A DNA stretch of 64,000 nt, from contig JAJFLA010000056.1 of assembly GCA_021772935.1 (NCBI GenBank), positions 140,976 through 204,975 of the forward strand. Direction: 5' to 3'. Each line of letters starts with the position of its first letter. The stretch's first letter is position 1. The notes below the pieces were generated by a model, which was not told where the DNA came from, made no database searches, and worked only from the letters and a program-made list of their open reading frames with translations. The stretch comes from Gammaproteobacteria bacterium. Its GTDB lineage: Bacteria; Pseudomonadota; Gammaproteobacteria; Xanthomonadales; SZUA-36. Below are positions 25,438-64,000 of the stretch, piece after piece. Both the position numbers and the translations under genes were made by a program.

Positions 25438-25657
25438 AGCTTATGAGTGTGCGGCAATATCAACACAGATGCACCTACGAAGCTTGTGTTGAAAACACCA
25501 ATCACGCGGCAATATCCAGGGTGCGTCGGTAATACTGATTCGATCAATTAGGATATAATGGTTGAAATCAGTGATAATGCATCAAGCAAACGTAGTTCAA
25601 TCAACCCTTTTTCGGCTTATAAGCAAGGCTTGCAATGACAAGAGAGATTTATTGATT

Positions 25658-26299
25658 ATGAATGAAGGCCGCCTGCAACGAATACCGCCACATTTGGCGC
25701 CCCAAAAAGGGGAGATTCGCTTATTTAAAAACAAATTACTGGAGCGACTCAGCCGGATTTCACCACAAACGGTACTGGCGGTTTACCTTCCGATTATAGT
25801 GTTTTCTGTTTGGAAAAGTTTTGCGATAGGTGTAAGTCCTCTGGTTTTCGGAGTTTTATTTTTGTCCGGTGTTATCTTTTGGACCTTGCTTGAGTTTGTC
25901 CTGCATCGCTATGCATTTCACTTTTTTCCGGTTGGAGATTTTCAGGTGCGTGTGCAGTTCCTGTTCCATGGAGTACACCACCAATACCCGAATGATAAGG
26001 ATCGATTGGTGATGCCGGTGACTTTGAGTCTGCTGATCACCGCGTTACTGTTTTTACTATTTAGCGTAATTTTTGGAGAATTTGTTTGGGGTTTCTTTGT
26101 TGGGGTCACCTTGGGTTACCTGGCTTATGACATGACACACTACAGTATTCACCATATACGGGCACCGCGGAACGTTTACCTTAAAAGGCTTTGGAAGCAC
26201 CACATGGACCACCACTACAGAGATACCAATAAAGCTTATGGTGTATCTTCAGCGCTTTGGGATCATGTGTTTGGTACAATGCAAACGCAAAAAAAGTGA
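25658..26299 (+). CDS. Fatty acid 2-hydroxylase-like membrane di-iron hydroxylase
   Basis: A 213-aa integral-membrane member of the fatty acid hydroxylase superfamily. The histidine clusters are HRYAFH, HGVHHQYPNDKDRLVMP, THYSIHH and HHMDHHYRD, ending KAYGVSSALWDHVFGTM. The HGxHHxxPxDKxRLVMP and HHYxxxxxxxGVxSxxWDxVFGT patterns are those I know from yeast Scs7 and mammalian FA2H, which hydroxylate C2 of the N-acyl chain of ceramides. At least three hydrophobic stretches are visible. It lacks the cytochrome b5 domain of the yeast enzyme. I start at ATG 25658, with AGAGAG upstream; ATG 25577 and TTG 25562 are in frame. It lies on the same strand ahead of the sphingolipid genes, so I infer that it makes 2-hydroxy-ceramide. 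Confidence 0.8.
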   Translation: MNEGRLQRIPPHLAPQKGEIRLFKNKLLERLSRISPQTVLAVYLPIIVFSVWKSFAIGVSPLVFGVLFLSGVIFWTLLEFVLHRYAFHFFPVGDFQVRVQFLFHGVHHQYPNDKDRLVMPVTLSLLITALLFLLFSVIFGEFVWGFFVGVTLGYLAYDMTHYSIHHIRAPRNVYLKRLWKHHMDHHYRDTNKAYGVSSALWDHVFGTMQTQKK

Positions 26300-29772: not shown

Positions 29773-30942
29773 ATGTCACTTCTAGATAAGTTTATAGGTG
29801 CCAAACAGCTAAAATCGGGCTTGGAAAACGCTGGTAAGGACCCTACAAATGTAGTGTTTGATTCTATCAACTCAGCTACAGAAGGGGTTGTAGATGGGCG
29901 AGTAACCATACTCGCAGGCACCAACAATTATCTTGGTCTGACATTCAACCCGGATTGTGTTGCCGCAGGTGTTTCGGCGCTGAAATCAGATGGTACTGGC
30001 ACCACGGGTTCACGCATGGCAAATGGCAGTTATGCAACACATGGTGCCCTGGAAGCGGAGTTGGCGGATTTCTTTCAGTGTGATCAGGCCATGGTATTTT
30101 CAACCGGTTATGCCGCTAATCTTGGAGTGTTGTCTGCATTACTGGGGAAAGGTGATGCAGTACTGTTGGACTCTGATGCCCACGCCAGCCTCTACGATGG
30201 TTGTCGAATGAGCGAGGCCGATGTGTTTCGCTTCAAGCACAACGATATGCAGAGCCTGGAAAAACGACTGACACGTTTGGGTGATCGCGCCAGTCGTTGC
30301 CTGATTGTCATTGAAGGCATGTACAGTGTATTGGGAGATTGTGCACCGTTGGCTGAGGTTGTGGCGCTCAAGGAGCGTTTTGGTGCCCATTTGCTGGTCG
30401 ACGAAGCACATTCCCTCGGTGTTTTTGGTCCACGAGGTTGTGGTGTGGCCGAAGAGCAGGGCGTGTTGGACAAAGTTGACTTTATCGTGGGCACTTTCAG
30501 CAAAAGTCTGGGTGCAATGGGTGGGTTCTGTGCCAGCCAACACGATGTGCTGGGGCTGTTCCGCTACGTTTCCAGACCTTTTATGTTTACCGCTTCACCT
30601 AGTCCGTCAGTTATTGCAACAACCCGGGAAGCATTACGGCAATTACGCACCCGGCCTGAATTGAAAGAAACGCTGTGGTCAAATGCAAGACAACTTTATA
30701 CCGGTCTGCAGGATTTGGGTTTTGAGCTTGGACCACAGCTTAGCCCCGTCATTGCTGTTCGTTGTCAGGACAGAGAATCAGCACTTTTCAACTGGAATCA
30801 GCTATTGCAGGCTGGTGTGTATGTCAACATGATGCTGCCGCCGGCGACACCGGGTGGTGCCTGCTTTTTGCGTTGTAGCATCGGTGCGGCGCATACCGCT
30901 GAACAAATCAGCACTATCATCGAAAAGTTTGCAGAATTGTAG
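29773..30942 (+). CDS. spt: Serine palmitoyltransferase-like alpha-oxoamine synthase
   Basis: A 389-aa PLP enzyme of the alpha-oxoamine synthase family, which condenses an amino acid with an acyl thioester. Motifs are TNNYLGLTFNPD, GTGTTGSRMANGSYATH, LDSDAHASLYDG, LLVDEAHSLGVFG and GTFSKSLGAMGGF with the PLP Lys at 244. BioF, KBL and HemA share these motifs. I favour serine palmitoyltransferase because the adjacent genes are a dedicated ACP, an acyl ligase and a ceramide-reductase-like SDR, and no biotin genes are near. The product would be 3-oxosphinganine. It is convergent with the flippase gene, 21 bp away. Confidence 0.85.
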   Translation: MSLLDKFIGAKQLKSGLENAGKDPTNVVFDSINSATEGVVDGRVTILAGTNNYLGLTFNPDCVAAGVSALKSDGTGTTGSRMANGSYATHGALEAELADFFQCDQAMVFSTGYAANLGVLSALLGKGDAVLLDSDAHASLYDGCRMSEADVFRFKHNDMQSLEKRLTRLGDRASRCLIVIEGMYSVLGDCAPLAEVVALKERFGAHLLVDEAHSLGVFGPRGCGVAEEQGVLDKVDFIVGTFSKSLGAMGGFCASQHDVLGLFRYVSRPFMFTASPSPSVIATTREALRQLRTRPELKETLWSNARQLYTGLQDLGFELGPQLSPVIAVRCQDRESALFNWNQLLQAGVYVNMMLPPATPGGACFLRCSIGAAHTAEQISTIIEKFAEL

Positions 30943-30963
30943 CGTGGGCATGAAGTGCCCGTG

Positions 30964-32241
30964 TTATTTATTTCGCACCAGCCGCAGCATTAATAGAAGT
31001 GTCAATAAAGTGCCTGAGCTGGCGGCAACCCCTGGTCCCAGCAAGCCCATAGACGGTATTAGTACATAGAATAAACTCAGGTAAATCAATACGCTCAGCA
31101 GATAGATACGCAGCACCTGAGCTACCTTGCCCATGGCATAGGCGGTAGCGCGCAATGGGGAGCCTGCCAGTTCAAATGTTGCTGCAAGCAGCATCAGGGT
31201 CAGGAGTGGTGCTGCTTCACTGTATTCAGGTCCGATAATACCGAGTATCGGACCGGCTGCGGGAATTGAAAGTAAAACCAATAGTAGTCCGGCGGCCCCC
31301 GCCACTTTAACCGCACGAAAGGCCAACTCATGGAATCCCTCTGCGTTGCTATGTAATATTCGGGCCAGGTCTGGGAACAATACTTCGTTAAGCATCATAG
31401 CCGGTTTACTCAATACACTTGAAAAATCACGCGCCAGTCGGAACATACCGGCGGCGGCCGGCCCCAGCATACTGCCAGCAAGCAGAACAACAAGGTGTTT
31501 TGGCACTAAATCGATGTTGGTCTGCCAGTAAACCACTGCGATAAAGTGGCGAAATTCCTTGCTGGTTTTCCGAGTTTCCTGCCAGTTTCCACCTTGCCAG
31601 ATGTGACTCTTGTGGTGCCGTTTGAATTCTACATGGCCTCGAATCATTAACCAGACGTTATCCAGCACAAAAGCTGCGGCCCAGATGGCAACAAAAACAA
31701 CCATGCCAGCGTCCACTGCCCAGGCAATGGCGACACCTGTGATGCGAATAGCTGGACCAACTATGTAGAAAACACTAAGCGCATCAAAGCGATCATATAA
31801 GCGCAATATGCCATTAGGTGTGTTGCTAGCGGTGCTCAACATGACCAGGCTATACAGACCCGTTAGTGAAATCATCTGTGCATCCCAGTGCAAAAAACCA
31901 CCCGCCACTGTGGCTGCTGCCATACCTACTAAAGTGGCTGCAATCGACGATGCCACATCGATCAGGGTGGTGGTTCGGAACAGCTGTTTCAGCCCTTTAT
32001 TTTCACCATTTTCATGTAGTGGAACGCCAAACCGTACGATGGCCTCGTAGGTTCTGAAGTTCAGAAAACCCCGCACCGCCAGCACGTATGTGTGTAACAG
32101 GATTACAAGACCAAACTCAGTGACGGGCAAGGCATGGGCCATCAGCGCTGTCGCTGCCAGCGTGAAGACCGCGGCGATACCTCGTCCTCGAAGTACAACC
32201 CCAAAATTTTTCAAAACCCGCCCAGAGGTATTTTTTTTCAC
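30964..32241 (-). CDS. MOP/Wzx-type lipid flippase
   Basis: A 425-aa polytopic membrane protein with about 12 hydrophobic stretches, of the polysaccharide-biosynthesis (Wzx/MATE-like) flippase superfamily. It closes a probable minus-strand operon lptF-lptG-CDP-alcohol transferase-Tam41-like-flippase. I place the start at GTG 32241, which overlaps the upstream stop (TAGTG), indicating coupling; TTG 32274 is the in-frame alternative. It could move a lipid-linked sugar, or a glycosylated or phospho-ceramide, across the inner membrane; the cluster suggests a sphingolipid but no motif proves it. Confidence 0.8.
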   Translation of the reverse strand: MKKNTSGRVLKNFGVVLRGRGIAAVFTLAATALMAHALPVTEFGLVILLHTYVLAVRGFLNFRTYEAIVRFGVPLHENGENKGLKQLFRTTTLIDVASSIAATLVGMAAATVAGGFLHWDAQMISLTGLYSLVMLSTASNTPNGILRLYDRFDALSVFYIVGPAIRITGVAIAWAVDAGMVVFVAIWAAAFVLDNVWLMIRGHVEFKRHHKSHIWQGGNWQETRKTSKEFRHFIAVVYWQTNIDLVPKHLVVLLAGSMLGPAAAGMFRLARDFSSVLSKPAMMLNEVLFPDLARILHSNAEGFHELAFRAVKVAGAAGLLLVLLSIPAAGPILGIIGPEYSEAAPLLTLMLLAATFELAGSPLRATAYAMGKVAQVLRIYLLSVLIYLSLFYVLIPSMGLLGPGVAASSGTLLTLLLMLRLVRNK

Positions 32242-33272
32242 TAGCGAAATGCACCCTGACGATAAAGTTTCCAAATCAAAGGCCAGGCAAAAATCAGGGG
32301 ATGTTTAAGTTGCCGTGTGCTTGGTTCGATATAAATTCCGGAGTGCCGTTCAATTTTCCATAATAGGTATTCCATGGGTTCGTTAAACGTGAACGCCGCC
32401 TTGAACAAACGCAACATTGATAGCAGCTTGCCTTGCACGCGGCGCAGCCACCAGGTCAATGAAGAGGTTTTTCTGGAAAAACCACTGCTCTGGTTGCAGA
32501 ACATACCATCGGCTTCTAACTTCAAAAGCGCTGGGTTTTTCTGGGCAAAAGAGTTCGTGACGCTGTCATAATATGCAGGTTCAAACTCATATATTGACTC
32601 GCCGCGGTTACTGTTTTCCGTACGCAGTTCACATTGATAGGTTAACGACAAACCACGTGTCCATAATTCCCTGCTGCTGAATTTGTCTTCCATGGCAGGT
32701 AGGGCACGTCGTAAAAACGTGGCTGAAGCGCTTTTGAATGCGTTTGTTAAAACGGCCTGTACTGTTTCATCGCGTACATACAGGACTTCACAGGGTTGTG
32801 CAAAACGCGCCCAAAAATAGGAATGAAAATCGTGTTGCATTGCGTCGCAAAATCGGCTCAGACTTAATAAGGCATATTTGGCACGCACGGCAAAGCTCTG
32901 ATCGTCTGCAGCTTCTGTCTTATGGTGAATATGGTAAACGTTGGGTGGCAACAGCCTGCACATCCATCCTTGCCAGGCTGAATCAAGTGTTTGGTAATCA
33001 TCCACCAGTACATAAAAGTCCAGCATGGTATCGCGCTTACCACGTAGCCAGGAGCCATAGACCAGTATGGCCTGCATTGTGTCACCATGTTTGCGCCTGA
33101 TTTCCTCAAGTAAAAGCTCAAGACTTACATCTTCCACCGATTCTTGCGGTGGAAATCTACTCTGATGGATATTGGGTGTCACCAGTTTATGCGTTTCATC
33201 ACTGCCTTCCATAAGCGCCCCGGGTCGCACCAAATATTGAATAAGAGTATGCATTTGGTCCCGTTGCCACAT
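32241..33272 (-). CDS. Tam41-like nucleotidyltransferase
   Basis: A 343-aa protein with an N-terminal nucleotidyltransferase-like core (ILVYGSWLRGKRDTMLDFYVLVDD), then VYHIHHKT and AKYALLSLSRFCDAM, FWARFAQPCEVLYVRD and a helical C-terminal half. This order resembles Tam41, the mitochondrial-type CDP-diacylglycerol synthase also known in some bacteria: a GS(x)n(D/E) nucleotide site, a KYG/KYA segment, then LAGRLQKPV-like sequence. It sits beside a CDP-alcohol phosphotransferase, so it may make a CDP-activated lipid, perhaps CDP-ceramide or CDP-diacylglycerol. Similarity is from memory and the lipid is inferred. ATGs at 33272, 33254 and 33212 are all possible; the first overlaps the upstream gene by 74 bases, the last by 14. 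Confidence 0.6.
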   Translation of the reverse strand: MWQRDQMHTLIQYLVRPGALMEGSDETHKLVTPNIHQSRFPPQESVEDVSLELLLEEIRRKHGDTMQAILVYGSWLRGKRDTMLDFYVLVDDYQTLDSAWQGWMCRLLPPNVYHIHHKTEAADDQSFAVRAKYALLSLSRFCDAMQHDFHSYFWARFAQPCEVLYVRDETVQAVLTNAFKSASATFLRRALPAMEDKFSSRELWTRGLSLTYQCELRTENSNRGESIYEFEPAYYDSVTNSFAQKNPALLKLEADGMFCNQSSGFSRKTSSLTWWLRRVQGKLLSMLRLFKAAFTFNEPMEYLLWKIERHSGIYIEPSTRQLKHPLIFAWPLIWKLYRQGAFR

Positions 33273-34419
33273 TGGTTTCGCTTAACCAAGAAATCAGCGG
33301 GCCTCGTGCCAACCTGGCCATTAATGCCTGGAACAGGCGAACAAGCAGTATGACCGTGGTCAAGGCAGACCAGAAGGTAACGGCAACAAATCCCCATTCC
33401 GGCCTGGCAATCAATAAGCTTAAACTCAATAAAATCAAGCAAGGGTTACGTCGTGCTGTGACCAGTCTGAACCACGCGTCAAAAGGGCGCCATGTGAATA
33501 TGCTGCATTTTCCCAAAAACGGGAACACACCTTCAACAACCCGTCCCACAACATAAGCAGTGATGATGATCGTATACATCTGTTCAAGCCCCTGACCCAA
33601 TACAAGCTGGAAATTGATCAACGACATGCCCCAGAAAATATACCAGAATGGAGGGTGAAACAGGTCGATAGCATGATCAAACAGGTGGCCAAATTTGCTT
33701 GATTGAATAGTGACACGAGCCAGCTTGCCATCGACCGTGTCGAGGAAGGTCATGATCCAGCCAGCCAACAGTCCCCAACCATAGTACCCGTTCAAGAACA
33801 GGTAACATGCAGCCAAAACCAGCAGGAGTCCAAAGCTTGTAACCATGTTCGGCGATATGCTCAAATTGGCACATAGGCGCACAAGCTGTTTGGCCGGTTT
33901 TGGCCAGACAAACTTAGTAACCAGATCTGTAATTCCCCGGTAGGCATTGCCGTATAAGCGATTCTCAAGTTCGTGTTTACGTGTGGCATTTACTGGCTCG
34001 AGCAATGGTACGGTAGATCTGCGCAAATTTTCATCAAAAGCTTCCATATCCTTGGTTTGAACGACCTGCAGGTCTTCGGGCAGGTGTTGGCTGTGATCAT
34101 GCATGTGAGTCAGCACTTCATTCAGGTAGTCCATATCAATAAAAGCTGCCGCCACAGTATTACCCGTATACTGCAAAACGGAATTTGGCTGTTCTAACAC
34201 GCCTCTAAGTGTACGTTTTTCAAACAGAAAATAGCCATTGAGCAATAAAACCTGACCTCTGAACGGCGCGTTATCGGCATTTTCCAACCAGTGTATGTGG
34301 CTTAAGTCACCAGCGGATTCCTTGCCTATTTCCTCTAGTTGCCGTTGTAGGCGGCGTGTTGAGCTAAGGCCCCAAAGGCGAACGGGTGAGTGTTCAGAAA
34401 CAAGCGCGTAAATGGTCAT
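33199..34419 (-). CDS. CDP-alcohol phosphotransferase with divergent N-terminal domain
   Basis: A 406-aa enzyme. The C-terminal half has the full CDP-alcohol phosphotransferase signature DG(x2)AR(x8)G(x3)D(x3)D starting at Asp 230, within about six membrane segments. These enzymes join a CDP-activated group to an alcohol, as in phosphatidylglycerol phosphate or phosphatidylinositol phosphate synthesis. The first 170 residues look like a worn nucleotidyltransferase domain (VLLLNGYFLFEKRTL) lacking the GxGxR loop, recalling inositol-phosphate cytidylyltransferase/DIPP synthase fusions. Between the halves lies GNAYRGITD, then NLSISPNMVT. The active cytidylyltransferase may instead be one of the separate genes nearby. 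It follows lptG by 33 bp on the same strand. Confidence 0.85.
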   Translation of the reverse strand: MTIYALVSEHSPVRLWGLSSTRRLQRQLEEIGKESAGDLSHIHWLENADNAPFRGQVLLLNGYFLFEKRTLRGVLEQPNSVLQYTGNTVAAAFIDMDYLNEVLTHMHDHSQHLPEDLQVVQTKDMEAFDENLRRSTVPLLEPVNATRKHELENRLYGNAYRGITDLVTKFVWPKPAKQLVRLCANLSISPNMVTSFGLLLVLAACYLFLNGYYGWGLLAGWIMTFLDTVDGKLARVTIQSSKFGHLFDHAIDLFHPPFWYIFWGMSLINFQLVLGQGLEQMYTIIITAYVVGRVVEGVFPFLGKCSIFTWRPFDAWFRLVTARRNPCLILLSLSLLIARPEWGFVAVTFWSALTTVILLVRLFQALMARLARGPLISWLSETNVATGPNAYSYSIFGATRGAYGRQ

Positions 34420-34452
34420 GTTATATTTCGTCTCGGATTAAACAGTGACTTT

Positions 34453-35526
34453 CTATAATGTTCGTCGGCGAATTGCGAATATGGCTATCGCCAGTAAAAT
34501 GAAAGGTGGGGTCAGGATAACCAGCGATGGGTTCAGACCCAAAATACCCGCCAGGTGACCACTTAACTGTTGCAACAAGTAAAAACCGATGCCAACTAAT
34601 CCACCCGTCATGGCCCGCTGGCTGGCAGATACTGATCGGACTGAGCCCAACAGAAATGGCAAAGACAACAAAGCCATGGCCAGTAAACCGGGTAGCAGGC
34701 TGATCTGCTGCCATAGCACGACTTCATACTGGTGGGTGTCAAGCTCATTTTTGTTCAGGTTTGATATTGTTTCAATCAGGTCATTTGGTGCCAATGCTTC
34801 GAGTGGCAAGATCAGTACTGCAGCTTGTTCAGCCGAAAGCAAAGCATTCCACTGCATGTTATCCCGTTTTGTTTCAGTCACCTGTGCATCCTGAAACCTG
34901 CTTTCCAAGACGTTAATCAACACCCAGTTTTCCCGCCCGGTATAAAACGCACTGGACGCTTGAATCAATTGTGTCAAGCGGCCTTGCTCATCGGTCGAGT
35001 AAATCTCAATACCAGCCAATGTACGGTCAGACTGTACATTGTCAACGCGGATAAAATGCTTGTCATTTCGGGTCCAGAATGCGCGTGATTCGCCTGTACC
35101 TGTTTCGGTGTTTTGCAATGCCTGTCCACGTAACCATGCCGCCTCACGTTCGAACCCAGGGACAACTGTGAACTGTAGAATTGTAATAAATATGCCCAGA
35201 AAAACAGCCAAACCAGCAACTGTTTGTGCGATGCGTTGTTTGGATATACCACTGGTACGTATAGCGATCAGTTCACGATGATTGGCCATTGCGCCCAGCC
35301 CAAATAAACCACCTAAAAGCGTGGTAACCGGTAGCAACTCTACGATTCGTTTGGGTGTGGTCAAAATAACCACTAACATGGCATCAGGCAGGGTAAAGCT
35401 ACCCTTGCCGACATCTTCCAACTCTTCGGCCAACGCCATGAAGCTGAATAACGCTAATAATAACAGCAGCGCCGGGAATATCCCGGCCAGGAATCGCTGC
35501 ATGATATAGCGATCAATCTTGAGCAC
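34453..35526 (-). CDS. lptG: LptG-family permease of an Lpt-type lipid exporter
   Basis: A 357-aa YjgP/YjgQ-family inner-membrane protein: three N-terminal membrane helices (LKIDRYIMQRFLAG start; PVTTLLGGLFGLGAMANHREL with the coupling-helix region), a periplasmic beta-jellyroll (about 130-265) and three C-terminal helices. In LPS export, LptF and LptG with the ATPase LptB extract LPS from the inner membrane. It overlaps the lptF gene by 14 bases. Unlike most Gammaproteobacteria, where lptFG sit by pepA, here they head an operon of sphingolipid head-group genes. They could be the cell's only lptFG or a paralogue dedicated to sphingolipids. Confidence 0.88.
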   Translation of the reverse strand: MLKIDRYIMQRFLAGIFPALLLLLALFSFMALAEELEDVGKGSFTLPDAMLVVILTTPKRIVELLPVTTLLGGLFGLGAMANHRELIAIRTSGISKQRIAQTVAGLAVFLGIFITILQFTVVPGFEREAAWLRGQALQNTETGTGESRAFWTRNDKHFIRVDNVQSDRTLAGIEIYSTDEQGRLTQLIQASSAFYTGRENWVLINVLESRFQDAQVTETKRDNMQWNALLSAEQAAVLILPLEALAPNDLIETISNLNKNELDTHQYEVVLWQQISLLPGLLAMALLSLPFLLGSVRSVSASQRAMTGGLVGIGFYLLQQLSGHLAGILGLNPSLVILTPPFILLAIAIFAIRRRTL

Positions 35527-36598
35527 GTCGGTCCTTCCTCAATTTGAGTGTTGCGGGTATGTACAAGCCCGCAACCACCAGCGAGAGTAGGCCGGGGACC
35601 CACCATATGTAAGCACTACTGCCTTGTTCAACCCAGCTGCGGCTAACATCCAGCAGGAAGAAATAAACAGAATAAATTACCAGTGCCAACAGCATCTTTG
35701 CATAACGCCCCTGCCGGGGACGGCTGCGACTCAGTGGGATGGCTGCCAATGCTAGCAACAAGGCAGAAACAGGTGTTGACAAGCGCCATTGAAATTCTGC
35801 CTGGCCAGTTGGGTCGGAGGACTGCCATAGATTTTTTGTGGTAGCGGATTTGACCTTGTAACCCGGTGGTTTTGGAGTTTCAGCCGGCAACCAAAGTGTG
35901 AATGTGTCGAATTGTGCCGAAAAGTCCGTGCCATCTTGCACTTTTCTCAAGACACGCGCGTCTGTCAACTGTAAGCGGTGAAGCATGGGCTTGAAAAGAT
36001 ATTCAAAAACCCCTTTGGTGGCAGTAATTACCTGCAGATCACGGTCTTTTCTCGTGCGAACAAAAATACCATCCAGATCACTGCCGTTTTCAGCGATTTT
36101 ATCTATAAAAACAGTCCGCCTACTGTCACCAAAAGTATAGAACCTCGCTGCCCGTATCCGCCCTGTTTCGGCGCTGGCCTCAGCGTTTGCCTTGACCTGG
36201 TACGATTGTGCGTAAGCCCAAGGCCGCGCCCAGGTAGACAGCACGGTCACCACCACGGCCAGTACCAGTGCCAGACGCATGAGTGGGCGCAACAGGCGAG
36301 CTTCACTGATGCCACTGGCGCGCATGGCATAGATTTCAGAATCGGTATAGAGACGGCCAAGACCGGTCATAACGGCCAGGAACAAACTGAGTGGCAAAAG
36401 AGTGTCCAGTGAAATGATGGATTTGAGTAAAGTTAGTCGTGCGACTTCACTGGCTTGCAAAAGCCCCGCATCCGCATCCACCAGGAAGCGGCTAAGGCTG
36501 AAGGTAATGAAAATAACCACAAGCGCTATGAAAATACCCAGCAATGGGTGCAGTACTTCTCTGAGTAGGTAATGATCGATAATGTTTTTTGTGGGCAT
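35513..36598 (-). CDS. lptF: LptF-family permease of an Lpt-type lipid exporter
   Basis: A 361-aa partner of the overlapping lptG product with the same layout: three N-terminal helices (IDHYLLREVLHPLLGIF; LPLSLFLAVMTGLGRLYTDSE, then YAMRASGIS), a periplasmic jellyroll and three C-terminal helices (FQWRLSTPVSALLLALAAIPLSRS). It is the first gene of the minus-strand operon. Its start is 99 bp from the divergent LptA-like gene, so one regulatory region could serve the inner-membrane and periplasmic parts of the exporter. Subunit assignment as F rather than G is by gene order and sequence feel. Confidence 0.87.
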   Translation of the reverse strand: MPTKNIIDHYLLREVLHPLLGIFIALVVIFITFSLSRFLVDADAGLLQASEVARLTLLKSIISLDTLLPLSLFLAVMTGLGRLYTDSEIYAMRASGISEARLLRPLMRLALVLAVVVTVLSTWARPWAYAQSYQVKANAEASAETGRIRAARFYTFGDSRRTVFIDKIAENGSDLDGIFVRTRKDRDLQVITATKGVFEYLFKPMLHRLQLTDARVLRKVQDGTDFSAQFDTFTLWLPAETPKPPGYKVKSATTKNLWQSSDPTGQAEFQWRLSTPVSALLLALAAIPLSRSRPRQGRYAKMLLALVIYSVYFFLLDVSRSWVEQGSSAYIWWVPGLLSLVVAGLYIPATLKLRKDRRAQD

Positions 36599-36697
36599 TT
36601 GTGTGGTGATTTGTGTGTGTTAGGGTTTTTCTTTGACATCAAAGTTGCCAGAACTTGCTATGATCAGTTAGCTTGAAGGTCAAATCCAGTAATAAGT

Positions 36698-37189
36698 ATG
36701 AAAAAAACAGTTATATGTAGTTTATTGACATTAATAGTCTCCCCTTGTCATGCAACACCATTAGGAGAGGGTGCTTTTGATACCATCAGTATAAGCGCGG
36801 ATGAGGCCCGTGAGGATGAACTGCCAGGAATTCTTCATTTTCAAGGACATTTTTTGATGCGAAGTGATGACTGGCAATTGACGTCTGCGCGGGCAACGGT
36901 TTATGGCAGACCCAACCGACCGGATGAGGTTTACCTGGAAGGTTCACCAGCCCGTTTCCTGATCAGTCAGACACATAATACCCAACAGGGTCCGGTTGAG
37001 GCTGTTGCGTCGGTTGTCGAGTATTTGCGTGCTGTTAACAAGTTGAAGTTATCCGGTGGTGCCACATTGACGTTGGATAAAGAGGTTATTCGGAGTACAT
37101 ATATTGAGTACGACATCAATACCAACCGCTATCATGCAGGCGGTATTGATGGTGTTCTGATCGAAGTTCAACCGGACAATATGTTTTAG
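36698..37189 (+). CDS. LptA/OstA-domain periplasmic protein
   Basis: A 163-aa secreted protein: signal peptide MKKTVICSLLTLIVSPCHA, then an OstA/LptA-type beta-jellyroll with ISISADEAREDE, LHFQGHF, TSARATVYGR, EVYLEGSPARF, VEAVASVVEYL and NKLKLSGGATLTLD. LptA strands form the bridge that carries LPS across the periplasm. A canonical lptA is present in this window at 50186-50800, so this is a second, divergent copy placed head-to-head with lptFG. I infer a bridge component for the sphingolipid cluster. Its stop lies 1 base before the end of the converging nucleotidyltransferase gene. Confidence 0.82.
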   Translation: MKKTVICSLLTLIVSPCHATPLGEGAFDTISISADEAREDELPGILHFQGHFLMRSDDWQLTSARATVYGRPNRPDEVYLEGSPARFLISQTHNTQQGPVEAVASVVEYLRAVNKLKLSGGATLTLDKEVIRSTYIEYDINTNRYHAGGIDGVLIEVQPDNMF

Positions 37190-37190
37190 C

Positions 37191-37919
37191 TTATCGTGAC
37201 CATCGCTCGACGACATCCGCCGCAGCTGCAAAATCTGCAGCATCATCGACTTCGCACCAACTCATACCATTTATCGGACAGATTCCAGCGATACCTTCAC
37301 TGGCAAGCTGGTCGATGGCAGACAGGTACCACAGCTTGAGTGCATCTGACTTGTCCATCATTTCTTCGAGTTTCTGTGTGAATGCATGTGCACCGGTTTC
37401 ATTAAATACCATCAGACCAATGCTTTCCCCGCTGACGAGGCTGATATCCAATTGCTTGCTGACTTTTAGTAGCCTGTCACCATCGGCAATAATCTTCATA
37501 TCATCAAGGTCAAAATAGGATTTGGTGTCGGTGGCAAGTGTAATGCCATAACTGTTGTCACAAGCAAGCAAGCGTTGCAGAATGGCGGCTTCGAATAAGG
37601 TATCCCCATTCATCAGCACAAACGGCCCATCCATTTCAAAACGTGCTTCCCAACAAGTACCGAGGTTGTCGGTGTGAGCATACATTGGGTTATGTAATGT
37701 TCGTACCTTGATGCCGCTAACCTTGTTTACGATCGTATCGACCATTTCACTTGCAAAACCAGACACGACCACGACTTCATCTATGTCGCATTGTGCGATC
37801 TGGCCTAATTGCCATTCAAGAATTGAGATTCCATGAAGGGGCAAACAGCACTTGGCCATGTTTGATGTCAATGGCATCAGCCGACGACCCTGGCCTGCGC
37901 TAAGTATGATTGCTTTCAA
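37191..37919 (-). CDS. Sugar/alcohol-phosphate nucleotidyltransferase (LicC/CpgD-like)
   Basis: A 242-aa NTP-transferase starting MKAIILSAGQGRRLMPLT, the GxGxR-type nucleotide loop, followed by KCCLPLHGISILEWQL, FVLMNGDTLFE with the metal-binding Asp, and SIGLMVFN. The size and motifs fit choline-phosphate or related cytidylyltransferases. In this cluster it may make the CDP-head group (for example CDP-glycerol, CDP-phosphoglycerate or CDP-inositol) used by the CDP-alcohol transferase 3 kb away. A cytidylyltransferase of the Caulobacter ceramide head-group pathway is the closest functional precedent I know. It converges with the LptA-like gene. Confidence 0.82.
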   Translation of the reverse strand: MKAIILSAGQGRRLMPLTSNMAKCCLPLHGISILEWQLGQIAQCDIDEVVVVSGFASEMVDTIVNKVSGIKVRTLHNPMYAHTDNLGTCWEARFEMDGPFVLMNGDTLFEAAILQRLLACDNSYGITLATDTKSYFDLDDMKIIADGDRLLKVSKQLDISLVSGESIGLMVFNETGAHAFTQKLEEMMDKSDALKLWYLSAIDQLASEGIAGICPINGMSWCEVDDAADFAAAADVVERWSR

Positions 37920-38087
37920 ACAGGTTCCTTACGAGAAAAGTGCTGCATTAGAACATGAATTCGTTAATCTGCAAAATGCATTATTGATACAATTAAGTGC
38001 ACAGCACTTGATAAGTACACAGAGTTTGGAATTTTTGCTGCCTACCCTGTGACAGGAGTCTTAGCAGACAGACGACGGATTAGGAAT

Positions 38088-39695
38088 ATGTTAATAGATC
38101 TTGAACAGACCACTGATGACATTTTGCTGGGTGCGGAAGTCTGTATTGTTGGTGCAGGAGCAGCGGGTGTTGCGCTTGCACGGGATTTGATGCACGCAGG
38201 GCGTGACGTGTGTCTGCTGGAAGGTGGTGGGATGGATTATGAAGAACACACCCAGTCATTATTCGATGGCAATAATATCGGCATGGAATATTATGATCTT
38301 GACCATGCCAGGTTACGTTTTTTTGGAGGGACAACTAATATCTGGGGCGGGCGCAGTGTTCCGTTGGACCCGATTGATTTTGAAAAACGTGAATGGGTAC
38401 CTCATAGCGGATGGCCGATCACACTTGATGACTTGCAGAATTATTACCGCATTGCTCATGATTCATTGGAACTGGGTGAGTTTGAGTATGAGGCCGGAAT
38501 TTGGGAAAAACTTCAGCTAAGTCCTATCGATTTTGATCCTGAAGAAATAGCCACGCGTTTCTGGCGGTTCGATGACCTTGCAGAACGCTTTAACAGCCGA
38601 CGAAGTGATGACCTGATTAAATCGGCAAATGTACGCGTTGTACTGCATGCAAACACTGTCGGACTCCAGGCAGTCGAAAACGCATCGGGTATCACACATT
38701 TGAATGCAAAATCCCTGTCAGGCAGGAAATTAAAAGTCCAGTCCCATCACTTTGTGCTTGCCTGTGGCGCGATTGAAAATGCTCGCTTGTTATTGGCATC
38801 CAATAATGTGGAAGCCAATGGGATTGGTAACCAGCATGATCAGTTGGGTCGCTATTTCATGGAACACCCGCACGGTAGAATTGCCCATATTGATACACAG
38901 GATCCCGCAGCTTTCTGGGCGTTGTATCGCAAGCGCTATCCGGTAGCGGGCGTGCCACTCGCCCCGGCGCTGGTGTTGCCGCCCTCTTTGCAGCAGCGAT
39001 TGGGTATTCTTAATAGCGCAGCTACCTTTAAATTACAGAAAGATCCGAGCAATGGCGCGACCATGAGTAAACGGGTATATCTAAACTTGAAACACAGTTT
39101 GTCGCCCTCGAAATCTGGTCGCCGTCTTTGGCAGACCTGGCGAGGCACTCAGGACTGGTTACAGCGGCATGTCTCCATGCCATTATTACGTTTTGGTGTG
39201 AAAGTTAACCGAATGGGTCTTTATGTGATTGCCCGCGCTGAGCAGGCCCCAAATCCTGATAGCCGCGTGTGCTTGTCAAAGAAGAAGGATGCATTGGGAA
39301 GCCCCAAGGCTGATCTCGATTGGCGTCTCAGCGCACTGGACAAGGAAACCATGCTGCAATTTGGCAAAACGCTGCAACGCGAGTTTGATCGGCTTGGCTT
39401 GGGTAAAGTGACAACCTCCCCATGGTTAGAGGACGGTCAACCCGAATGGCCGGTCGATGCGAGCGTAGGCAATCATCCGATTGGTGGTTACCACCATATG
39501 GGCACGACCCGTATGAGCGCGTCAGCCAAGAACGGTGTGGTGGACGCCAATTGTACGATACACGGATATCACAACCTACACATCGCTGGAAGTTCTGTAT
39601 TTACTACCGGGGGGTGGGCCAATCCTACTTTGACCTTGCTGGCGTTGACGCATCGGCTCGGTGATCACTTGAATATCTTGTTGGACAGGCAGTAA
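38088..39695 (+). CDS. GMC-family FAD-dependent oxidoreductase
   Basis: A 535-aa flavoenzyme: N-terminal FAD motif VCIVGAGAAGVALARDL, FFGGTTNIWGGRSVPLD, FVLACGAIENARLLL, and the C-terminal GMC region GGYHHMGTTRMS, VVDANCTIHGYHNLHIAGSSVF and GGWANPTLTLLAL. GMC enzymes oxidise alcohols on sugars, sterols and other substrates. Its substrate is unknown; a hydroxyl on the sphingoid base, acyl chain or head group is possible from context. I start at ATG 38088; GTG 38049 is in frame. The 168-bp upstream gap to the divergent nucleotidyltransferase contains no visible gene. Confidence 0.85.
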   Translation: MLIDLEQTTDDILLGAEVCIVGAGAAGVALARDLMHAGRDVCLLEGGGMDYEEHTQSLFDGNNIGMEYYDLDHARLRFFGGTTNIWGGRSVPLDPIDFEKREWVPHSGWPITLDDLQNYYRIAHDSLELGEFEYEAGIWEKLQLSPIDFDPEEIATRFWRFDDLAERFNSRRSDDLIKSANVRVVLHANTVGLQAVENASGITHLNAKSLSGRKLKVQSHHFVLACGAIENARLLLASNNVEANGIGNQHDQLGRYFMEHPHGRIAHIDTQDPAAFWALYRKRYPVAGVPLAPALVLPPSLQQRLGILNSAATFKLQKDPSNGATMSKRVYLNLKHSLSPSKSGRRLWQTWRGTQDWLQRHVSMPLLRFGVKVNRMGLYVIARAEQAPNPDSRVCLSKKKDALGSPKADLDWRLSALDKETMLQFGKTLQREFDRLGLGKVTTSPWLEDGQPEWPVDASVGNHPIGGYHHMGTTRMSASAKNGVVDANCTIHGYHNLHIAGSSVFTTGGWANPTLTLLALTHRLGDHLNILLDRQ

Positions 39696-39756
39696 TAAAA
39701 GGCAAAACGAGACTAATTCAGAGGCGCTCCGGGTAAATCACCAGACCAGTTTCCGA

Positions 39757-39877
39757 TGGCCCAGGCCAGCCTCTCGACCAGTTCCTGGTCTCACCTTCTC
39801 CGTGTGCTCTATTGCGAAATAGGTGTAACACTGACACGATCGCATCGCACGTCCCTGTGCTCTATTGCGATATACCG
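39757..39877 (-). repeat. REP-like palindromic repeat block, inverted relative to the 63.5-64 kb array
   Basis: The block carries TGGCCCAGGCCA (39757-39768), the hairpin GACCAG-TTC-CTGGTC (39776-39790), then two units of GTGCTCTATTGCG (about 39803 and 39858) around a GATCGCATCGCAC segment. In order and sequence it is the reverse complement of the units in the terminal array. The last unit supplies the stop codon of the adjoining minus-strand gene (39862-39864). Confidence 0.85.
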
Positions 39878-40761
39878 TCCGTCCTGGACATAATTTTTTC
39901 TGCTAATTGCTGGTCTTCGATGGAATCAACGTCCACGGCAGCCCTGGCAAAATCCAATTGCACATAGCCAATTCGGCAACCTGCAGCCGTTGAAAATGAC
40001 CGAAGCACCTGTTCAAACGTTACGCGTCTGAACAGGTAACGCAAGAGAGCCATGGGACCGAAGCGACGCGCAATTCGCCAAGGGTGTTTGCGATCAGCTT
40101 CTGCCTGACGCCAGAAAACGAGTGCCTTCCGACCTTCTGGGCTGAGAATGGCGCAGAGGTTACTACCACAGAAATGTCCATCTGAAAATTTTAGTACCGT
40201 GCGTTTGTTTTCCGGCCAGGCCGCGTGAACCAGCGCGTGTGGGACAAAGCCCATGACAAGATCGTAGTTTGAATCGTTCACGGAAGAGGGGAGGGGACGG
40301 GCATCGATCGAGAGGCTGCCAGGGTCTACTGACAGCTGGTCGGGAGGCTGGTCTGGGGTATGCGAAAACGCTTGTGTGCAGAAGTCATCCACGATTTCGC
40401 CAGTTAACAAGGCATGGTCACCGGCTGTCAGCAGAGTCGGGTAATGATCCAGTTTCTCCAATGCCGCCAATGCACTATTGGTGGGCCCGAGGTCTGGCGC
40501 CAGCCACTCAAAAGCCCGGTGTTGTAGAAGATTTTTTAAACCTGGGTTGTTTGCAACGACATCAGCCGATGGCCCACAAATGATACCGCCACCCACCAAG
40601 CGACTATCTGTAATCGCCTGCATCACATGTGCGAGTGCTGGTTTACCAGCAACAGGAACCATCACACTTGCTGTGATATTGAAGGCGTGGCTTAGTGCGC
40701 TGCCGCCTGGGCGTTCACCCGCGAGTATGATTGAGCGGTATTTAGCCGATTGCTCGATCAT
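39862..40761 (-). CDS. Nucleotidyltransferase-family protein with repeat-derived segments
   Basis: A 299-aa MobA-like NTP-transferase: SIILAGERPGGSALSHAF as the nucleotide loop, then VMVPVAGKPALAHVMQAI and LLTAGDHALLTGEIV with the expected Asp. The spacing fits a CDP- or UDP-forming enzyme for a small phosphorylated head group. The middle (about residues 133-165) is a Pro/Ser/Asp-rich stretch encoded by DNA matching the local palindromic repeat, and the C-terminal ISQ and stop lie inside another repeat copy, so both the linker and end look repeat-derived. It lies 15 bp downstream of the ceramide-synthase-like gene on the same strand, which suggests one operon. Confidence 0.75.
   Translation of the reverse strand: MIEQSAKYRSIILAGERPGGSALSHAFNITASVMVPVAGKPALAHVMQAITDSRLVGGGIICGPSADVVANNPGLKNLLQHRAFEWLAPDLGPTNSALAALEKLDHYPTLLTAGDHALLTGEIVDDFCTQAFSHTPDQPPDQLSVDPGSLSIDARPLPSSVNDSNYDLVMGFVPHALVHAAWPENKRTVLKFSDGHFCGSNLCAILSPEGRKALVFWRQAEADRKHPWRIARRFGPMALLRYLFRRVTFEQVLRSFSTAAGCRIGYVQLDFARAAVDVDSIEDQQLAEKIMSRTDGISQ
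40304..40358 (-). repeat. In-frame palindromic repeat fragment inside the nucleotidyltransferase gene
   Basis: CTGGTCGGGAGGCTGGTCTG at 40336 matches the CTGGTCGAGAGGCTGGTCTG unit of the terminal array with one change, and ATCGAGAGGCTGCC at 40307-40320 is a second partial copy. The reading frame passes through both. Confidence 0.75.
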
Positions 40762-40776
40762 GTCGGAGTAGAAGGT

Positions 40777-41922
40777 TTAAATGTCTTTGTCATACATTCG
40801 GTAACGTTTCGTAACCTCGCCACCGACACTTTCAATGATATTTCTAGTGGCATGGTTATGCTCTAGTACCCAGGACATTTCAACACGCTCAAGACCTTTG
40901 GATGTACCGGCGTCCATTGCAGCCTTGATAACCATATAGGCCAGTGCCGGGCCGAAGCGGGTGTTCTGATATTTCTGCCGGACACCCATCAATGCCACCC
41001 GGGCTGTTTTGGGGGAAGCAACCTTCAGACGCCAAAACAATTTGGCCCAGCCGAATGGTAGCAGACGGCCATTCAAGTCTGCGATGGCTTCATTGATATT
41101 GGGTAGCAGGACAACAAAAGAAGCGGCTTGACCATCGATTTCAGCAATTTGGATAAAATCCTTGGGCAGCAACATCAATAATTCCTTGCCGATCACACTG
41201 AATTCTTCACGCGTAAACGGTACATAGTTCCAATTGTTCTGCCAGGCGTCATTGAAAATGTCCCGCATCAATTCAAGCTCATTGGTCTTTTCGTTGCGAT
41301 CCAGGCAACGGACCTTAACGCGGTTAGCGCTTCTTGTGATGAGTGCCTGCATAACCCTGGGTATGGTGAGCATGTGGTTGTCCAACTCATAGGCCAGCAA
41401 ATCTTGTGCTGGCTGGTAGCCACAACGCTCAATCGCGGCGCCGTAGTAGTTTGGTGAATGAGCCATCATGACGTAAGGCGGGGTATCAAAACCATCGACC
41501 AGGATGCCGAGTTCCTGATTGATGCCGAGGCTGAAAGGGCCTAAGGCCTTTCGCATACCCTTGGCCCGCAACCAATACTCAGCAGTATCAAACAATGCTT
41601 TGAAAACAGCATCATCATCTGGGGCTTCAATTAAGCCGAAAAACCCGATCTTGTTATCGTATCGTTGCTGGTGTAAATGATCGATTTGTGCCGAAATGCG
41701 CCCGACTGGCTTGCCGTCCCTGTAAGCTGTCCATGCCTGCCAGTCAGCGTGCATGAAATATGGGTGTTTGTGTGAAAAAGCTTCTCTGCGTTCGGCAAGC
41801 AGCGGTGGCACCCAGTTTGGATCATCCTGGTAAATGCCCCAGGGTACCCGAATAAACGTATCTAAGGCCTGCTTTCCGGAAACCTCTCTGATTTCAACTG
41901 CTGTGTCAGAAAAACTATTCAT
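40777..41922 (-). CDS. GNAT-fold acyltransferase, candidate bacterial ceramide synthase
   Basis: A 381-aa protein of the GNAT-like family recognised by an opening such as FIRVPWGIYQDDPNWVPPLL, then WTAYRDGKPVGRISAQID, GFFGLIEAPDD, LGPFSLGINQELGILVDG, PPYVMMAHSPNYY and a C-terminal SWVLEHNHATRNIIESVG with GNAT character. I recall that the ceramide synthase of Caulobacter, found beside its spt-acp-cerR genes, is of this kind; it N-acylates the sphingoid base. Its presence in this island supports that role, though related proteins of unknown role are widespread. It heads a short run with the nucleotidyltransferase at 39862. No signal peptide is seen. Confidence 0.65.
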   Translation of the reverse strand: MNSFSDTAVEIREVSGKQALDTFIRVPWGIYQDDPNWVPPLLAERREAFSHKHPYFMHADWQAWTAYRDGKPVGRISAQIDHLHQQRYDNKIGFFGLIEAPDDDAVFKALFDTAEYWLRAKGMRKALGPFSLGINQELGILVDGFDTPPYVMMAHSPNYYGAAIERCGYQPAQDLLAYELDNHMLTIPRVMQALITRSANRVKVRCLDRNEKTNELELMRDIFNDAWQNNWNYVPFTREEFSVIGKELLMLLPKDFIQIAEIDGQAASFVVLLPNINEAIADLNGRLLPFGWAKLFWRLKVASPKTARVALMGVRQKYQNTRFGPALAYMVIKAAMDAGTSKGLERVEMSWVLEHNHATRNIIESVGGEVTKRYRMYDKDI

Positions 41923-41995
41923 AAACTAACTTCCAGTGAATGTGGGTTACATTGTCGTGTATCAATTGCAGGCAGGGTATGAAATAAGCCGACAG

Positions 41996-49464: not shown

Positions 49465-50184
49465 TTAGAGGCGGAACTCGCTTCCAAGATAAACCTTTCG
49501 CACCTCTTCGTTGGCCAACAGGGAGTCTGCATTCCCTTCTGCCAAGACCTGCCCTTCATTCAAAATATAAGCGTGGTGGCAGATACCCAGCATCTCACGG
49601 ACATTGTGGTCAGTAATCAAGACACCGATATCCTGGTCTGTCAGTTGTCTGATGATTCCCTGTATTTCCCGAACCGAAAGTGGGTCAACGCCTGCGAAGG
49701 GCTCGTCGAGCAGGATAAATCTTGGTCTTGCAGCCAGCGCACGGGCTATCTCTACTCTGCGTCGTTCACCGCCTGACAGCACTTGCCCCATCTGGTTTGC
49801 AAGGTGTGCTACGCCCAGCTCTTCCATCAGTGTTTGTTGTGTCTCTTTGCGGCTATCCGCATCAAGGTCACGGCGTAATTCAAGGATAGCCATGATATTG
49901 TCACGTACGGAAAGCTTACGGAACACGGAAGCTTCCTGGGGCAGGTAACCGACACCAAGACTGGAACGTACATTTACCGGTTTGTGCGTTATATCTACAG
50001 AGTCAACTGTAATACTGCCTTTATCAGTTGGGATCAATCCTACGATCATATAAAAACAGGTGGTCTTGCCAGCCCCGTTGGGGCCAAGTAAACCAACCAC
50101 CTGGCCGGGTTCCACTTCAATGTTTACGCCACGCACGACTTCTTTTTTGCGGTAGGATTTATGCAGGTTGGTGGCCTTGAGCAT
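49465..50184 (-). CDS. lptB: LPS export ABC transporter ATPase LptB
   Basis: The cytoplasmic ATPase that powers LptB2FGC. The 239-aa protein shows Walker [11 protein letters not shown]-loop LPQEASVF, the signature [15 protein letters not shown], Walker [11 protein letters not shown] and the H-loop ITDHNVRE. The start is ATG 50184, one base past the lptA stop; an in-frame extension to 50256 lies inside lptA. It probably serves the LptFG encoded at 34-36 kb too, since no second lptB is visible in the sphingolipid island. Confidence 0.95.
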
Positions 50185-50185
50185 G

Positions 50186-50800
50186 TTAGTTGTTTTCCTT
50201 GCTGGAATCACCTGTGTCCGAGTTTTGTTTGTCTGGATCAGTTGCTTCGGGCTCACTCACAGGGTCTTTGTTTTGCTTGTCTGTACTGAGTACTTCAGGA
50301 TCAAGCCGGATATGCATTCTGTGACTACCGTTTTCATCGCCGCTACCCTGAAAGTGCTGGATGTTAAGGTCGTAAGTTAGCAGTTCGCCATTAATCTGGT
50401 ACTGGGGGTGCTTTACACTGGCCTTACCAGTCAACGTCACCAGTCCGCTGGCAACCTGGTAATCAATGATCTGGGCAGTGGCTTGAACCAGTCCTTTTTC
50501 CTCAATTTCCTGTTCTAGAAACGCGGGCTTGCCACGAAAGGTTACCGATTTAACCCGACCATCGGTTTTGTTGACCTCAGCCTCATCCGCCGTTATATGT
50601 AAGGTGCCCTGGCGGATATCGACATTGCCCCATAATGTGGTGAGGCCATCACCGAGTGATCCGTCAGTGTTATCAGCATAGATCTGCAGGGTTTCTTGCC
50701 GATCTGTTTCTAATGCCATCAGTGGCAGGCTGAAAAATAATATGCATAGCAATACACAAAATTTGTGCTGCACCCTGGGTGCTCTGTTAGTTAACTGCAT
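50186..50800 (-). CDS. lptA: LPS export periplasmic bridge protein LptA
   Basis: The canonical LptA of the lptCAB operon. The 204-aa protein has a signal peptide ([17 protein letters not shown]), then the OstA fold with [42 protein letters not shown] and [19 protein letters not shown]. An acidic Asp/Lys/Ser-rich tail (about 170-204) extends past the fold. ATG 50800 overlaps lptC by 14 bases. Compare the LptA-like protein at 36698-37189. Confidence 0.92.
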
Positions 50801-63418: not shown

Positions 63419-63500
63419 GGTCTTAATATCCTGTATATCAATGTATGTATAGGTGTTATACCACACTACAACACTAAAGACAAATTATTATGCACAGGAC

Positions 63501-64000
63501 GTGCGGTATATCGCGATAGAGCACAAGGATGTGCGGCGCGATTGATAAGGTGTTGCACGGCAATAAAGATGTGCGGTATATCGCGATAGAGCACAAGGAC
63601 AAGGTGAGAGAAGGTGAGACCAGGAACTGGTCGAGAGGCTGGCCTGGGCCATGTGCGGCGCGATTGATAAGGTGTTGCACGGCAACAAAGACGTGCGGTA
63701 TATCGCGATAGAGCACAGGGATGTGCGGCGCGATTGATGGGGTGTCGCACGGCAATAAAAAAGTGCGGTATATCGCGATAGAGCACAAGGACAAGGTGAG
63801 AGAAGGTGAGACCAGGAACTGGTCGAGAGGCTGGTCTGGGCCACCGGGTACCGGTCGAGAGGGTGGCCTGGGCCATGTGCGGCGCGATTGATAAGGTGTT
63901 GCACGGCAACAAAGATGTGCGGTATATCGCGATAGAGCACAAGGACAAGGTGAGAGAAGGTGAGACCAGGAACTGGTCGAGAGGCTGGCCTGGGCCACCG
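63501..64000. repeat. Array of mixed palindromic repeats at the window end
   Basis: Three unit types alternate. Unit A, beginning GTGCGGTATATCGCGATA with the 10-bp palindrome TATCGCGATA, starts at 63501, 63571, 63693, 63763 and 63917. Unit B, beginning GTGCGGCGCGATTGAT, starts near 63531, 63653, 63723 and 63875. Unit C carries the hairpin GACCAG-GAA-CTGGTC (63618, 63810, 63964) and a TGGCC-TG-GGCCA palindrome. A-to-A spacing is 70, 122, 70 and 154 bp. The array continues past the window. The open frames running through it are translations of repeats, not genes. Confidence 0.92.

What the first reader, a model, noticed from the sequence alone, without database searches (positions are those of the whole stretch)
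34453..37189. A second Lpt-type export set (LptF, LptG, LptA-like) inside the sphingolipid island
lptF-lptG head a minus-strand operon with CDP-alcohol transferase, Tam41-like and flippase genes, and face a divergent LptA-like gene. The window also carries the canonical lptC-lptA-lptB operon, so the second LptA is a paralogue. I infer an exporter that lifts a sphingolipid to the outer membrane, perhaps sharing LptB. No LptC, LptD or second LptB is seen in the island.
Basis: inference. Interest (0 to 1): 0.85.

Follow-up and report, generated by a model that had tools for sequence, protein, structure and literature searches.

The report
Sphingolipid-island Lpt export pair plus LptA2
Next to its sphingolipid-making genes this Lysobacterales bacterium carries a second LptF-LptG-LptA set, the kind of machine that normally lifts LPS to the cell surface; most examined sphingolipid-gene genomes without the LPS gene lpxC keep only this second type of LptFG pair, so it likely carries sphingolipids to the outer membrane, a step for which no transporter seems to have been shown.

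Summary
Window 34453-37189 encodes LptG2, LptF2 and a divergent LptA2. The genome (98% complete) has two LptFG pairs (the canonical one beside a pepA-like gene), two LptA-like genes, and one each of LptB, LptC and LptD. In 151 genomes of the order, 30 of 33 with serine palmitoyltransferase have extra LptFG, against 1 of 118 without; LptA2 occurs in 12, all with Spt. Island LptFG forms clades apart from canonical LptFG. Of nine spt genomes estimated 100% complete, lacking LpxC, and with LptFG counted, eight have one pair only: in six the island pair, in two a pair elsewhere but of island type; one has none. The likely cargo is the island's phosphosphingolipid, with LptB shared. A similar exporter (LptC2F2G2) was proposed, untested, for Caulobacter (PMC11324152). 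Added here: LptA2 instead of LptC2, the LpxC contrast, rejection of a single origin for alpha- and gamma-type island pairs (AU p 7e-6), and a hydrophobic LptF2 exit site. No transport was measured.

The parts
35513..36598 (-). lptF2, second LptF permease
   Evidence: PF03739 E 3.6e-66; TIGR04407 312.9 vs 230 bits; 31% identical to the canonical LptF of the same genome
34453..35526 (-). lptG2, second LptG permease
   Evidence: PF03739 E 5.1e-65; TIGR04408 305.3 vs 240 bits; 28% identical to the canonical LptG
36698..37189 (+). lptA2, LptA-type periplasmic jellyroll protein, divergent from lptF2; signal-peptide-like start (by eye)
33199..34419 (-). CDP-alcohol phosphotransferase, probable headgroup enzyme of the island
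   Evidence: PF01066 42.4 vs 22 bits
32241..33272 (-). Tam41-like nucleotidyltransferase (weak label)
   Evidence: PF09139 18.1 bits, under cut-off 24
30964..32274 (-). MATE/flippase-like membrane protein (weak label), candidate flippase
   Evidence: PF01554 17.3 bits, under cut-off 24.9; island profile also matches the gene upstream of aasR in Caulobacter sp. HMWF025, 386 bits
29773..30942 (+). spt, serine palmitoyltransferase (context: cargo synthesis)
   Evidence: NCBIfam NF047599 597.9 vs 500 bits
40777..41922 (-). GNAT-family protein, candidate ceramide synthase cerS (context)
   Evidence: PF00583 31.9 vs 20.7 bits; the cerS label is by gene position and recall, no family model matched
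49465..50256 (-). lptB, the only LptB over cut-off found in the genome; presumed shared ATPase
   Evidence: TIGR04406 370 vs 240 bits, next ABC protein 164 bits
50186..50839 (-). canonical lptA (comparison)
   Evidence: TIGR03002 101.5 vs 71.7 bits
50787..51350 (-). lptC, the only LptC found in the genome (comparison)
   Evidence: PF06835 107 vs 21 bits; single match in G000

Best explanation
LptF2, LptG2 and LptA2 are a second Lpt-type set beside the sphingolipid genes that is likely to export the island's ceramide-based phospholipid to the outer membrane. Inferred mechanism: ceramide is made and given a phospho-headgroup at the inner membrane; the MATE-like protein probably flips it; LptF2G2, driven by the genome's only LptB, would pull it out of the periplasmic leaflet; LptF2 would pass it through a hydrophobic rather than cationic exit site to LptA2; LptA2 would bridge to the only LptD. 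Shown by calculation: gene content, co-occurrence with spt, separate ancestry of the pair, exclusive retention of island-type LptFG in eight of nine counted genomes without LpxC, conserved LptB-coupling glutamates, and the LptA-type fold of the LptA2 model. Not shown: cargo, partners, direction, sharing of LptB and LptD, and whether LptC takes part.
For: Extra LptFG in 30 of 33 spt genomes and 1 of 118 others in the order sample; LptA2 in 12 of 151, all 12 with Spt, and divergent next to lptF2 in the window and in all 11 loci fetched for the other genomes. Island pairs form clades apart from canonical ones: 26 gamma-type pairs plus G511 100/99, 14 alpha-type pairs plus G512 100/100. LpxC-negative spt genomes estimated 100% complete, LptFG counted in nine: six have the island pair only, two have one island-type pair elsewhere, one has none; three LpxC-positive alphas with an island pair (G664, G504, G698) have two pairs. 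LptF E84 kept in 34 of 34 and LptG E88 in 31 of 34 gamma island proteins, the window included. LptF exit positions 223 and 230: Arg/Lys in 51 of 60 gamma canonical vs 2 of 34 gamma island; Phe/Met/Leu in 1 of 60 vs 34 of 34. LptA2 model is LptA-like.
Against: Some spt genomes lack a nearby pair: G366 and G411 have only a canonical-type pair, and 13 of 40 named spt loci with complete 10-kb flanks have none, although one of these is Caulobacter HMWF025, and the C. crescentus pair is in the cluster described in PMC11324152. G547 has spt, no LpxC and no LptFG at all. G388 and G398 of the window's own genus gave no LpxC yet have four LptFG; they are 88-89% complete. LptFG was counted in only 11 of the 23 LpxC-negative genomes. 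Most spt islands have no LptA2: the profile hit 11 of 60 fetched neighbourhoods and, strongly, 2 of 80 named loci. The exit-site change is not seen in alpha islands. E. coli LptG K34 and LptF R212 do not discriminate.
Confidence: 0.55

Rival explanations
1. The island pair exports sphingolipid, but hands it to the ordinary LptC-LptA-LptD bridge; LptA2 is only an accessory or a lipid-binding modulator.
For: Most spt islands with LptFG show no LptA2; the genome has one LptC and one LptD.
Against: In the LptA2 clade the gene accompanies lptF2 in all 12 genomes found, and the pairs of this clade form one branch (100/100).
Confidence: 0.22
2. The pair moves another lipid made by the island's CDP-alcohol and Tam41-like enzymes (a glycerophospholipid), not a sphingolipid.
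For: The headgroup enzymes are in the same operon and no family model names their substrate.
Against: Extra LptFG tracks spt across the order; orthologues of such enzymes are required for phosphosphingolipids in Caulobacter (PMC11324152, sections 8 and 13; the orthology of the window's genes is inferred).
Confidence: 0.12
3. It is a second LPS exporter, for LPS in general or for a variant form.
For: LptF2 and LptG2 pass the NCBIfam cut-offs of the LPS exporters; LpxC is present in this genome.
Against: Eight of nine counted LpxC-negative genomes keep only island-type LptFG; conserved location beside spt; changed exit site in gamma LptF2.
Confidence: 0.08
4. Chance location of ordinary LPS genes.
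For: A canonical lptCAB operon lies 12 kb away in the same window.
Against: The canonical pair is elsewhere in the genome; conserved neighbourhood in other lineages; separate clades; Fisher p 4e-27 for extra LptFG with spt, not corrected for kinship.
Confidence: 0.01

Closest known systems
Proposed phosphosphingolipid exporter of Caulobacter crescentus: LptC2 (CC_1168), LptF2/LptG2 (CC_1156, CC_1155), flippase CC_1166 (PMC11324152; abstract, section 8 part 1 of 2, sections 9 and 13, and passages read; supplements not readable)
   Same: Second LptFG pair inside the spt cluster with headgroup enzymes and a flippase-like gene; same proposed job; untested there too
   Different: Here the third jellyroll protein is LptA-type (PF03968), not LptC-type; named Caulobacterales loci carry an LptC-type gene. 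The LptFG pair belongs to a different clade from alpha island pairs. PMC11324152 says the gammaproteobacteria it examined lack CC_1168 and mentions no LptA2 in the parts I read
Canonical Lpt system (LptB2FG-C-A-DE) of E. coli
   Same: LptF/LptG family, coupling-helix glutamates, LptA-type jellyroll
   Different: Beside spt; no own LptB, LptC or LptD in the island; about 24-31% identity to the genome's own canonical copies; hydrophobic exit site; kept without LpxC
LptC-bypass six-protein Lpt bridge in E. coli LptF R212 mutants (PMC9972910, passages read)
   Same: A precedent for LptF handing lipid straight to LptA without LptC
   Different: A laboratory mutant carrying LPS; R212 is also absent from the canonical LptF of the window's family, so the residue proves nothing here
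Borrelia burgdorferi Lpt orthologues (PMC10353723, abstract and outline seen)
   Same: Lpt orthologues in a bacterium without LPS, suggested by modelling to carry glycolipids
   Different: No sphingolipid island; not compared by sequence here

Membership tests
LptF/LptG permeases (PF03739; TIGR04407, TIGR04408) | Full-length match over the curated cut-offs | tested here: met
LptF/LptG permeases (PF03739; TIGR04407, TIGR04408) | Coupling-helix glutamates E84 (LptF) and E88 (LptG) for LptB | tested here: met
   Both Glu in the window proteins; 34 of 34 and 31 of 34 gamma island proteins
LptF/LptG permeases (PF03739; TIGR04407, TIGR04408) | LPS as the cargo | not testable with these tools
   Indirect evidence against: island type kept in LpxC-negative genomes
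LptA (TIGR03002 equivalog) | Score over the equivalog cut-off | tested here: not met
   52.8 vs 71.7 bits; the genome's canonical LptA scores 101.5
LptA/LptD_N domain family (PF03968) | Score over the gathering cut-off | tested here: met
   38.3 vs 20.4 bits
LptA/LptD_N domain family (PF03968) | LptA-type beta-jellyroll fold | tested here: met
LptA/LptD_N domain family (PF03968) | Bridging between inner-membrane complex and LptD | not testable with these tools
   No interaction data
Proposed Caulobacter sphingolipid exporter (LptC2/F2/G2 plus flippase) | Second LptFG pair beside spt | tested here: met
Proposed Caulobacter sphingolipid exporter (LptC2/F2/G2 plus flippase) | Second LptC | tested here: not met
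   One PF06835 match in a genome 98% complete, at E up to 1
Proposed Caulobacter sphingolipid exporter (LptC2/F2/G2 plus flippase) | Flippase gene in the cluster | tested here: inconclusive
   MATE-like gene present but MatE under cut-off; profile match to the Caulobacter gene
Proposed Caulobacter sphingolipid exporter (LptC2/F2/G2 plus flippase) | Same LptFG lineage | tested here: not met
   All island pairs as one clade rejected, AU p 6.9e-6; C. crescentus itself was not in the tree, the Caulobacterales-like row L312 was

The most novel reading that the evidence does not exclude
Proteobacteria built dedicated sphingolipid conveyor belts out of the LPS machine at least twice, once in alpha- and once in gammaproteobacteria. 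In the Lysobacterales branch this grew into a near-complete second periplasmic bridge, LptF2G2-LptA2, that works without a second LptC, runs on the shared LptB and empties into the shared LptD; lineages that lost LPS run on this belt alone.
Probability: 0.35. Interest if true: 0.88.

Novelty: new variant of a known kind. Interest (0 to 1): 0.73.

Why it matters
How sphingolipids reach the outer membrane was called unknown in 2024 (PMC11324152, passage). If this reading is right, Lpt is not an LPS machine as such but a lipid-conveyor chassis that has been re-aimed more than once, and two LptFG types in one cell with one LptB and one LptD give a direct way to ask what sets cargo choice. It also offers a simple account of how bacteria without LPS furnish their surface, and names a small gene set to delete.

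Tried and rejected
Substrate-lysine test: E. coli LptG K34 and R136 (PMC5548808, passages) were looked up in 34 gamma island and 57 gamma canonical LptG. The six commonest residues at K34 in canonical LptG (51 of 57) are not Lys, and R136 is Arg/Lys in 24 of 34 island and 48 of 57 canonical, so neither position says anything about cargo.

LptC-bypass test: LptF R212, whose replacement bypasses LptC in E. coli (PMC9972910, passages), is absent in 34 of 34 gamma island LptF, but also in 10 of 10 canonical LptF of the window's family; 39 of 50 other gamma canonical LptF have Arg. It does not show that LptF2 works without LptC.

LptA- or LptC-type genes in other islands: 81 of 107 listed uncharacterised ORFs from 19 loci were scanned together with LptA2. 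PF03968 was matched by no more than one member (LptA2 itself) and PF06835 by no more than one; only 25 of 59 families were shown, so a single LptC match is not excluded. The LptA2 profile found nothing in 49 of 60 fetched neighbourhoods at E up to 10.

Transfer of the whole cluster from alpha to gamma as the only story (suggested in PMC11324152, section 9): not borne out for LptFG (AU test), though single transfers seem to occur: Solimonas marina L297 has an alpha-type pair and Nitrospirillum L287 a gamma-type pair. The rows G511 and G512 were put in the island group after the first quick tree had been seen, which the AU test does not allow for. 66 of 141 complete pairs, picked by me, were used.

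Base composition gives no sign of recent import (47-51% GC over 30001-42000, window range 45-52%). A promoter/terminator scan of 36400-36900 gave about what shuffles give.

Full report
What is there. Window 34453-37189 holds LptG2 and LptF2 on the minus strand and LptA2 on the plus strand. LptF2 and LptG2 match PF03739 over almost the whole model and pass the NCBIfam LptF and LptG equivalog cut-offs; LptA2 passes PF03968 but not the LptA equivalog cut-off. With the start codons of the ORF list, the five minus-strand genes overlap or nearly touch (14-bp overlap, 33-bp gap, 74-bp and 34-bp overlaps), so lptF2-lptG2-CDP-alcohol transferase-Tam41-like-MATE-like is a plausible operon. The Tam41 and MatE labels rest on sub-threshold scores. 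Spt passes its own equivalog cut-off.

The rest of the genome. G000 is 98% complete in 56 contigs. It has four PF03739 matches: the island pair and a second pair at C52:58280-60423, divergent from an ORF that reads as the aminopeptidase pepA (label by eye, the same neighbour as in E. coli). There are two PF03968 matches, one LptC, one LptD and one LptB over cut-off (370 bits; next ABC protein 164, cut-off 240). LpxC is present, so this organism should make LPS as well. Island and canonical proteins share 31% (F), 28% (G) and 24% (A) identity.

Not a chance location. In 151 genomes drawn from the order, 33 have a strong Spt (E at or below 1e-129; the next match in any other genome is 1.5e-68). 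Of these, 30 have three or more matches to LptG2, against 1 (G317) of the other 118. The three exceptions are G366 and G411, which have only a canonical-type pair, and G405, whose island pair was seen in its locus. LptA2 at E 7.5e-18 or better is in 12 genomes, all with Spt; 24 further genomes have weaker matches (8.5e-11 at best), which I read as canonical LptA. In the window's family, 11 of 25 genomes have Spt, LptA2 and four LptFG matches; the other 14 have no strong Spt, no close LptA2 and at most two LptFG matches. The Fisher p values (2e-9 for LptA2, 4e-27 for extra LptFG) ignore kinship. LptA2 stands divergent to lptF2 in the window and in all 11 other loci fetched for these genomes.

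Wider. An LptFG pair lies beside cerS or spt in many other gamma and alpha lineages. One of the 13 without is Caulobacter sp. HMWF025, and PMC11324152 describes a pair in the C. crescentus cluster, so a 10-kb flank undercounts.

Ancestry. A quick tree of 197 proteins put 34 gamma island LptF in one clade (support 99) and 34 gamma island LptG in another (96). In a tree of 66 concatenated LptF+LptG rows, 26 gamma-type island pairs plus G511 form one clade (100/99), 14 alpha-type island pairs plus G512 another (100/100), and three alpha canonical pairs a third (100/100). Holding all islands together is rejected (AU p 6.9e-6), and so is placing G511 with the gamma canonical rows (p 4e-4). So the pair was probably recruited at least twice, with some later transfers (L287, L297). 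The pairs with a detected LptA2 in this tree (G000, G320, G341, G327, G298, G304, L335) and L354, whose contig ends at lptF2, form one clade (100/100), which fits one gain of LptA2. LptA2 proteins (18) are a clade apart from canonical LptA (18), SH-aLRT 99.

The LPS contrast. I searched LpxC in 65 genomes, 63 of them with spt; 23 lacked it, and LptFG had been counted in 11 of those 23. Nine are estimated 100% complete: G427, G717, G705, G729, G646 and G619 have one pair, the island pair; G511 and G512 have one pair elsewhere in the genome that groups inside the island clades; G547 has none. The other two, G388 and G398, belong to the window's genus, have four LptFG matches and are fragmented and 88-89% complete, so the missing LpxC may be an assembly gap. 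LpxC-positive alphas with an island pair (G664, G504, G698) have two pairs. G619's pair is close to that of named Sphingopyxis JAI108; Sphingomonas koreensis is named as a bacterium lacking LPS in PMC11324152 (passage). The plain reading is that canonical LptFG goes with LPS and the island type with sphingolipid. It is a correlation over few independent losses.

Against what is known. PMC11324152 proposes LptC2, LptF2, LptG2 and a flippase as a phosphosphingolipid exporter in Caulobacter, says transport was not studied further, and reports that the beta- and gammaproteobacteria it examined lack the LptC2 orthologue. No other paper listed in nine searches of the held library appeared to make this link; I judged the others by title and abstract, preprints and most subscription papers are not held, and the paper's supplements were not readable here. 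The window's case is thus a variant of a proposed kind. What I add is LptA2, the LpxC contrast, the two origins and the exit-site signature.

Noticed in passing
window 34420-34452; L137 10962-11891; L141 11805-12749: Two genus relatives carry a metallophosphoesterase gene (PF00149) between lptG2 and the CDP-alcohol gene; in the window the two genes are 33 bp apart and no similar gene is found in the 64 kb.
   Followed up: partly
L294 502-1245 (Gammaproteobacteria MAG JOPF141): A different LptA-like gene (PF03968, 61 bits) sits divergent between an island-type lptF and spt; on the LptA tree it is a long branch on the canonical side, perhaps an independent recruitment.
   Followed up: partly
L322, L328: MAGs labelled Nitrospirota and Nitrospirales carry the spt cluster with a gamma-type island LptFG pair, possible spread beyond Proteobacteria or mislabelled contigs.
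   Followed up: no
L001 1309-2571 and canonical lptF of nine family members: LptF position 212 (Arg in E. coli, LptC-bypass site) is Val, Ile, Ala or Met in 10 of 10 canonical LptF of the window's family, although the window's genome has LptC.
   Followed up: partly
window 25562-26299: Fatty acid hydroxylase family gene (PF04116) just upstream of the ceramide genes, a candidate for hydroxylating the sphingolipid.
   Followed up: no
G511 C1:2176934-2179047: A gammaproteobacterium without LpxC whose only LptFG pair lies far from spt yet is of island type, a natural test case.
   Followed up: partly
window 63498-63843: Tandem array (periods 70 and 192 bp, 90-95% matches) at the right end of the window.
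   Followed up: no
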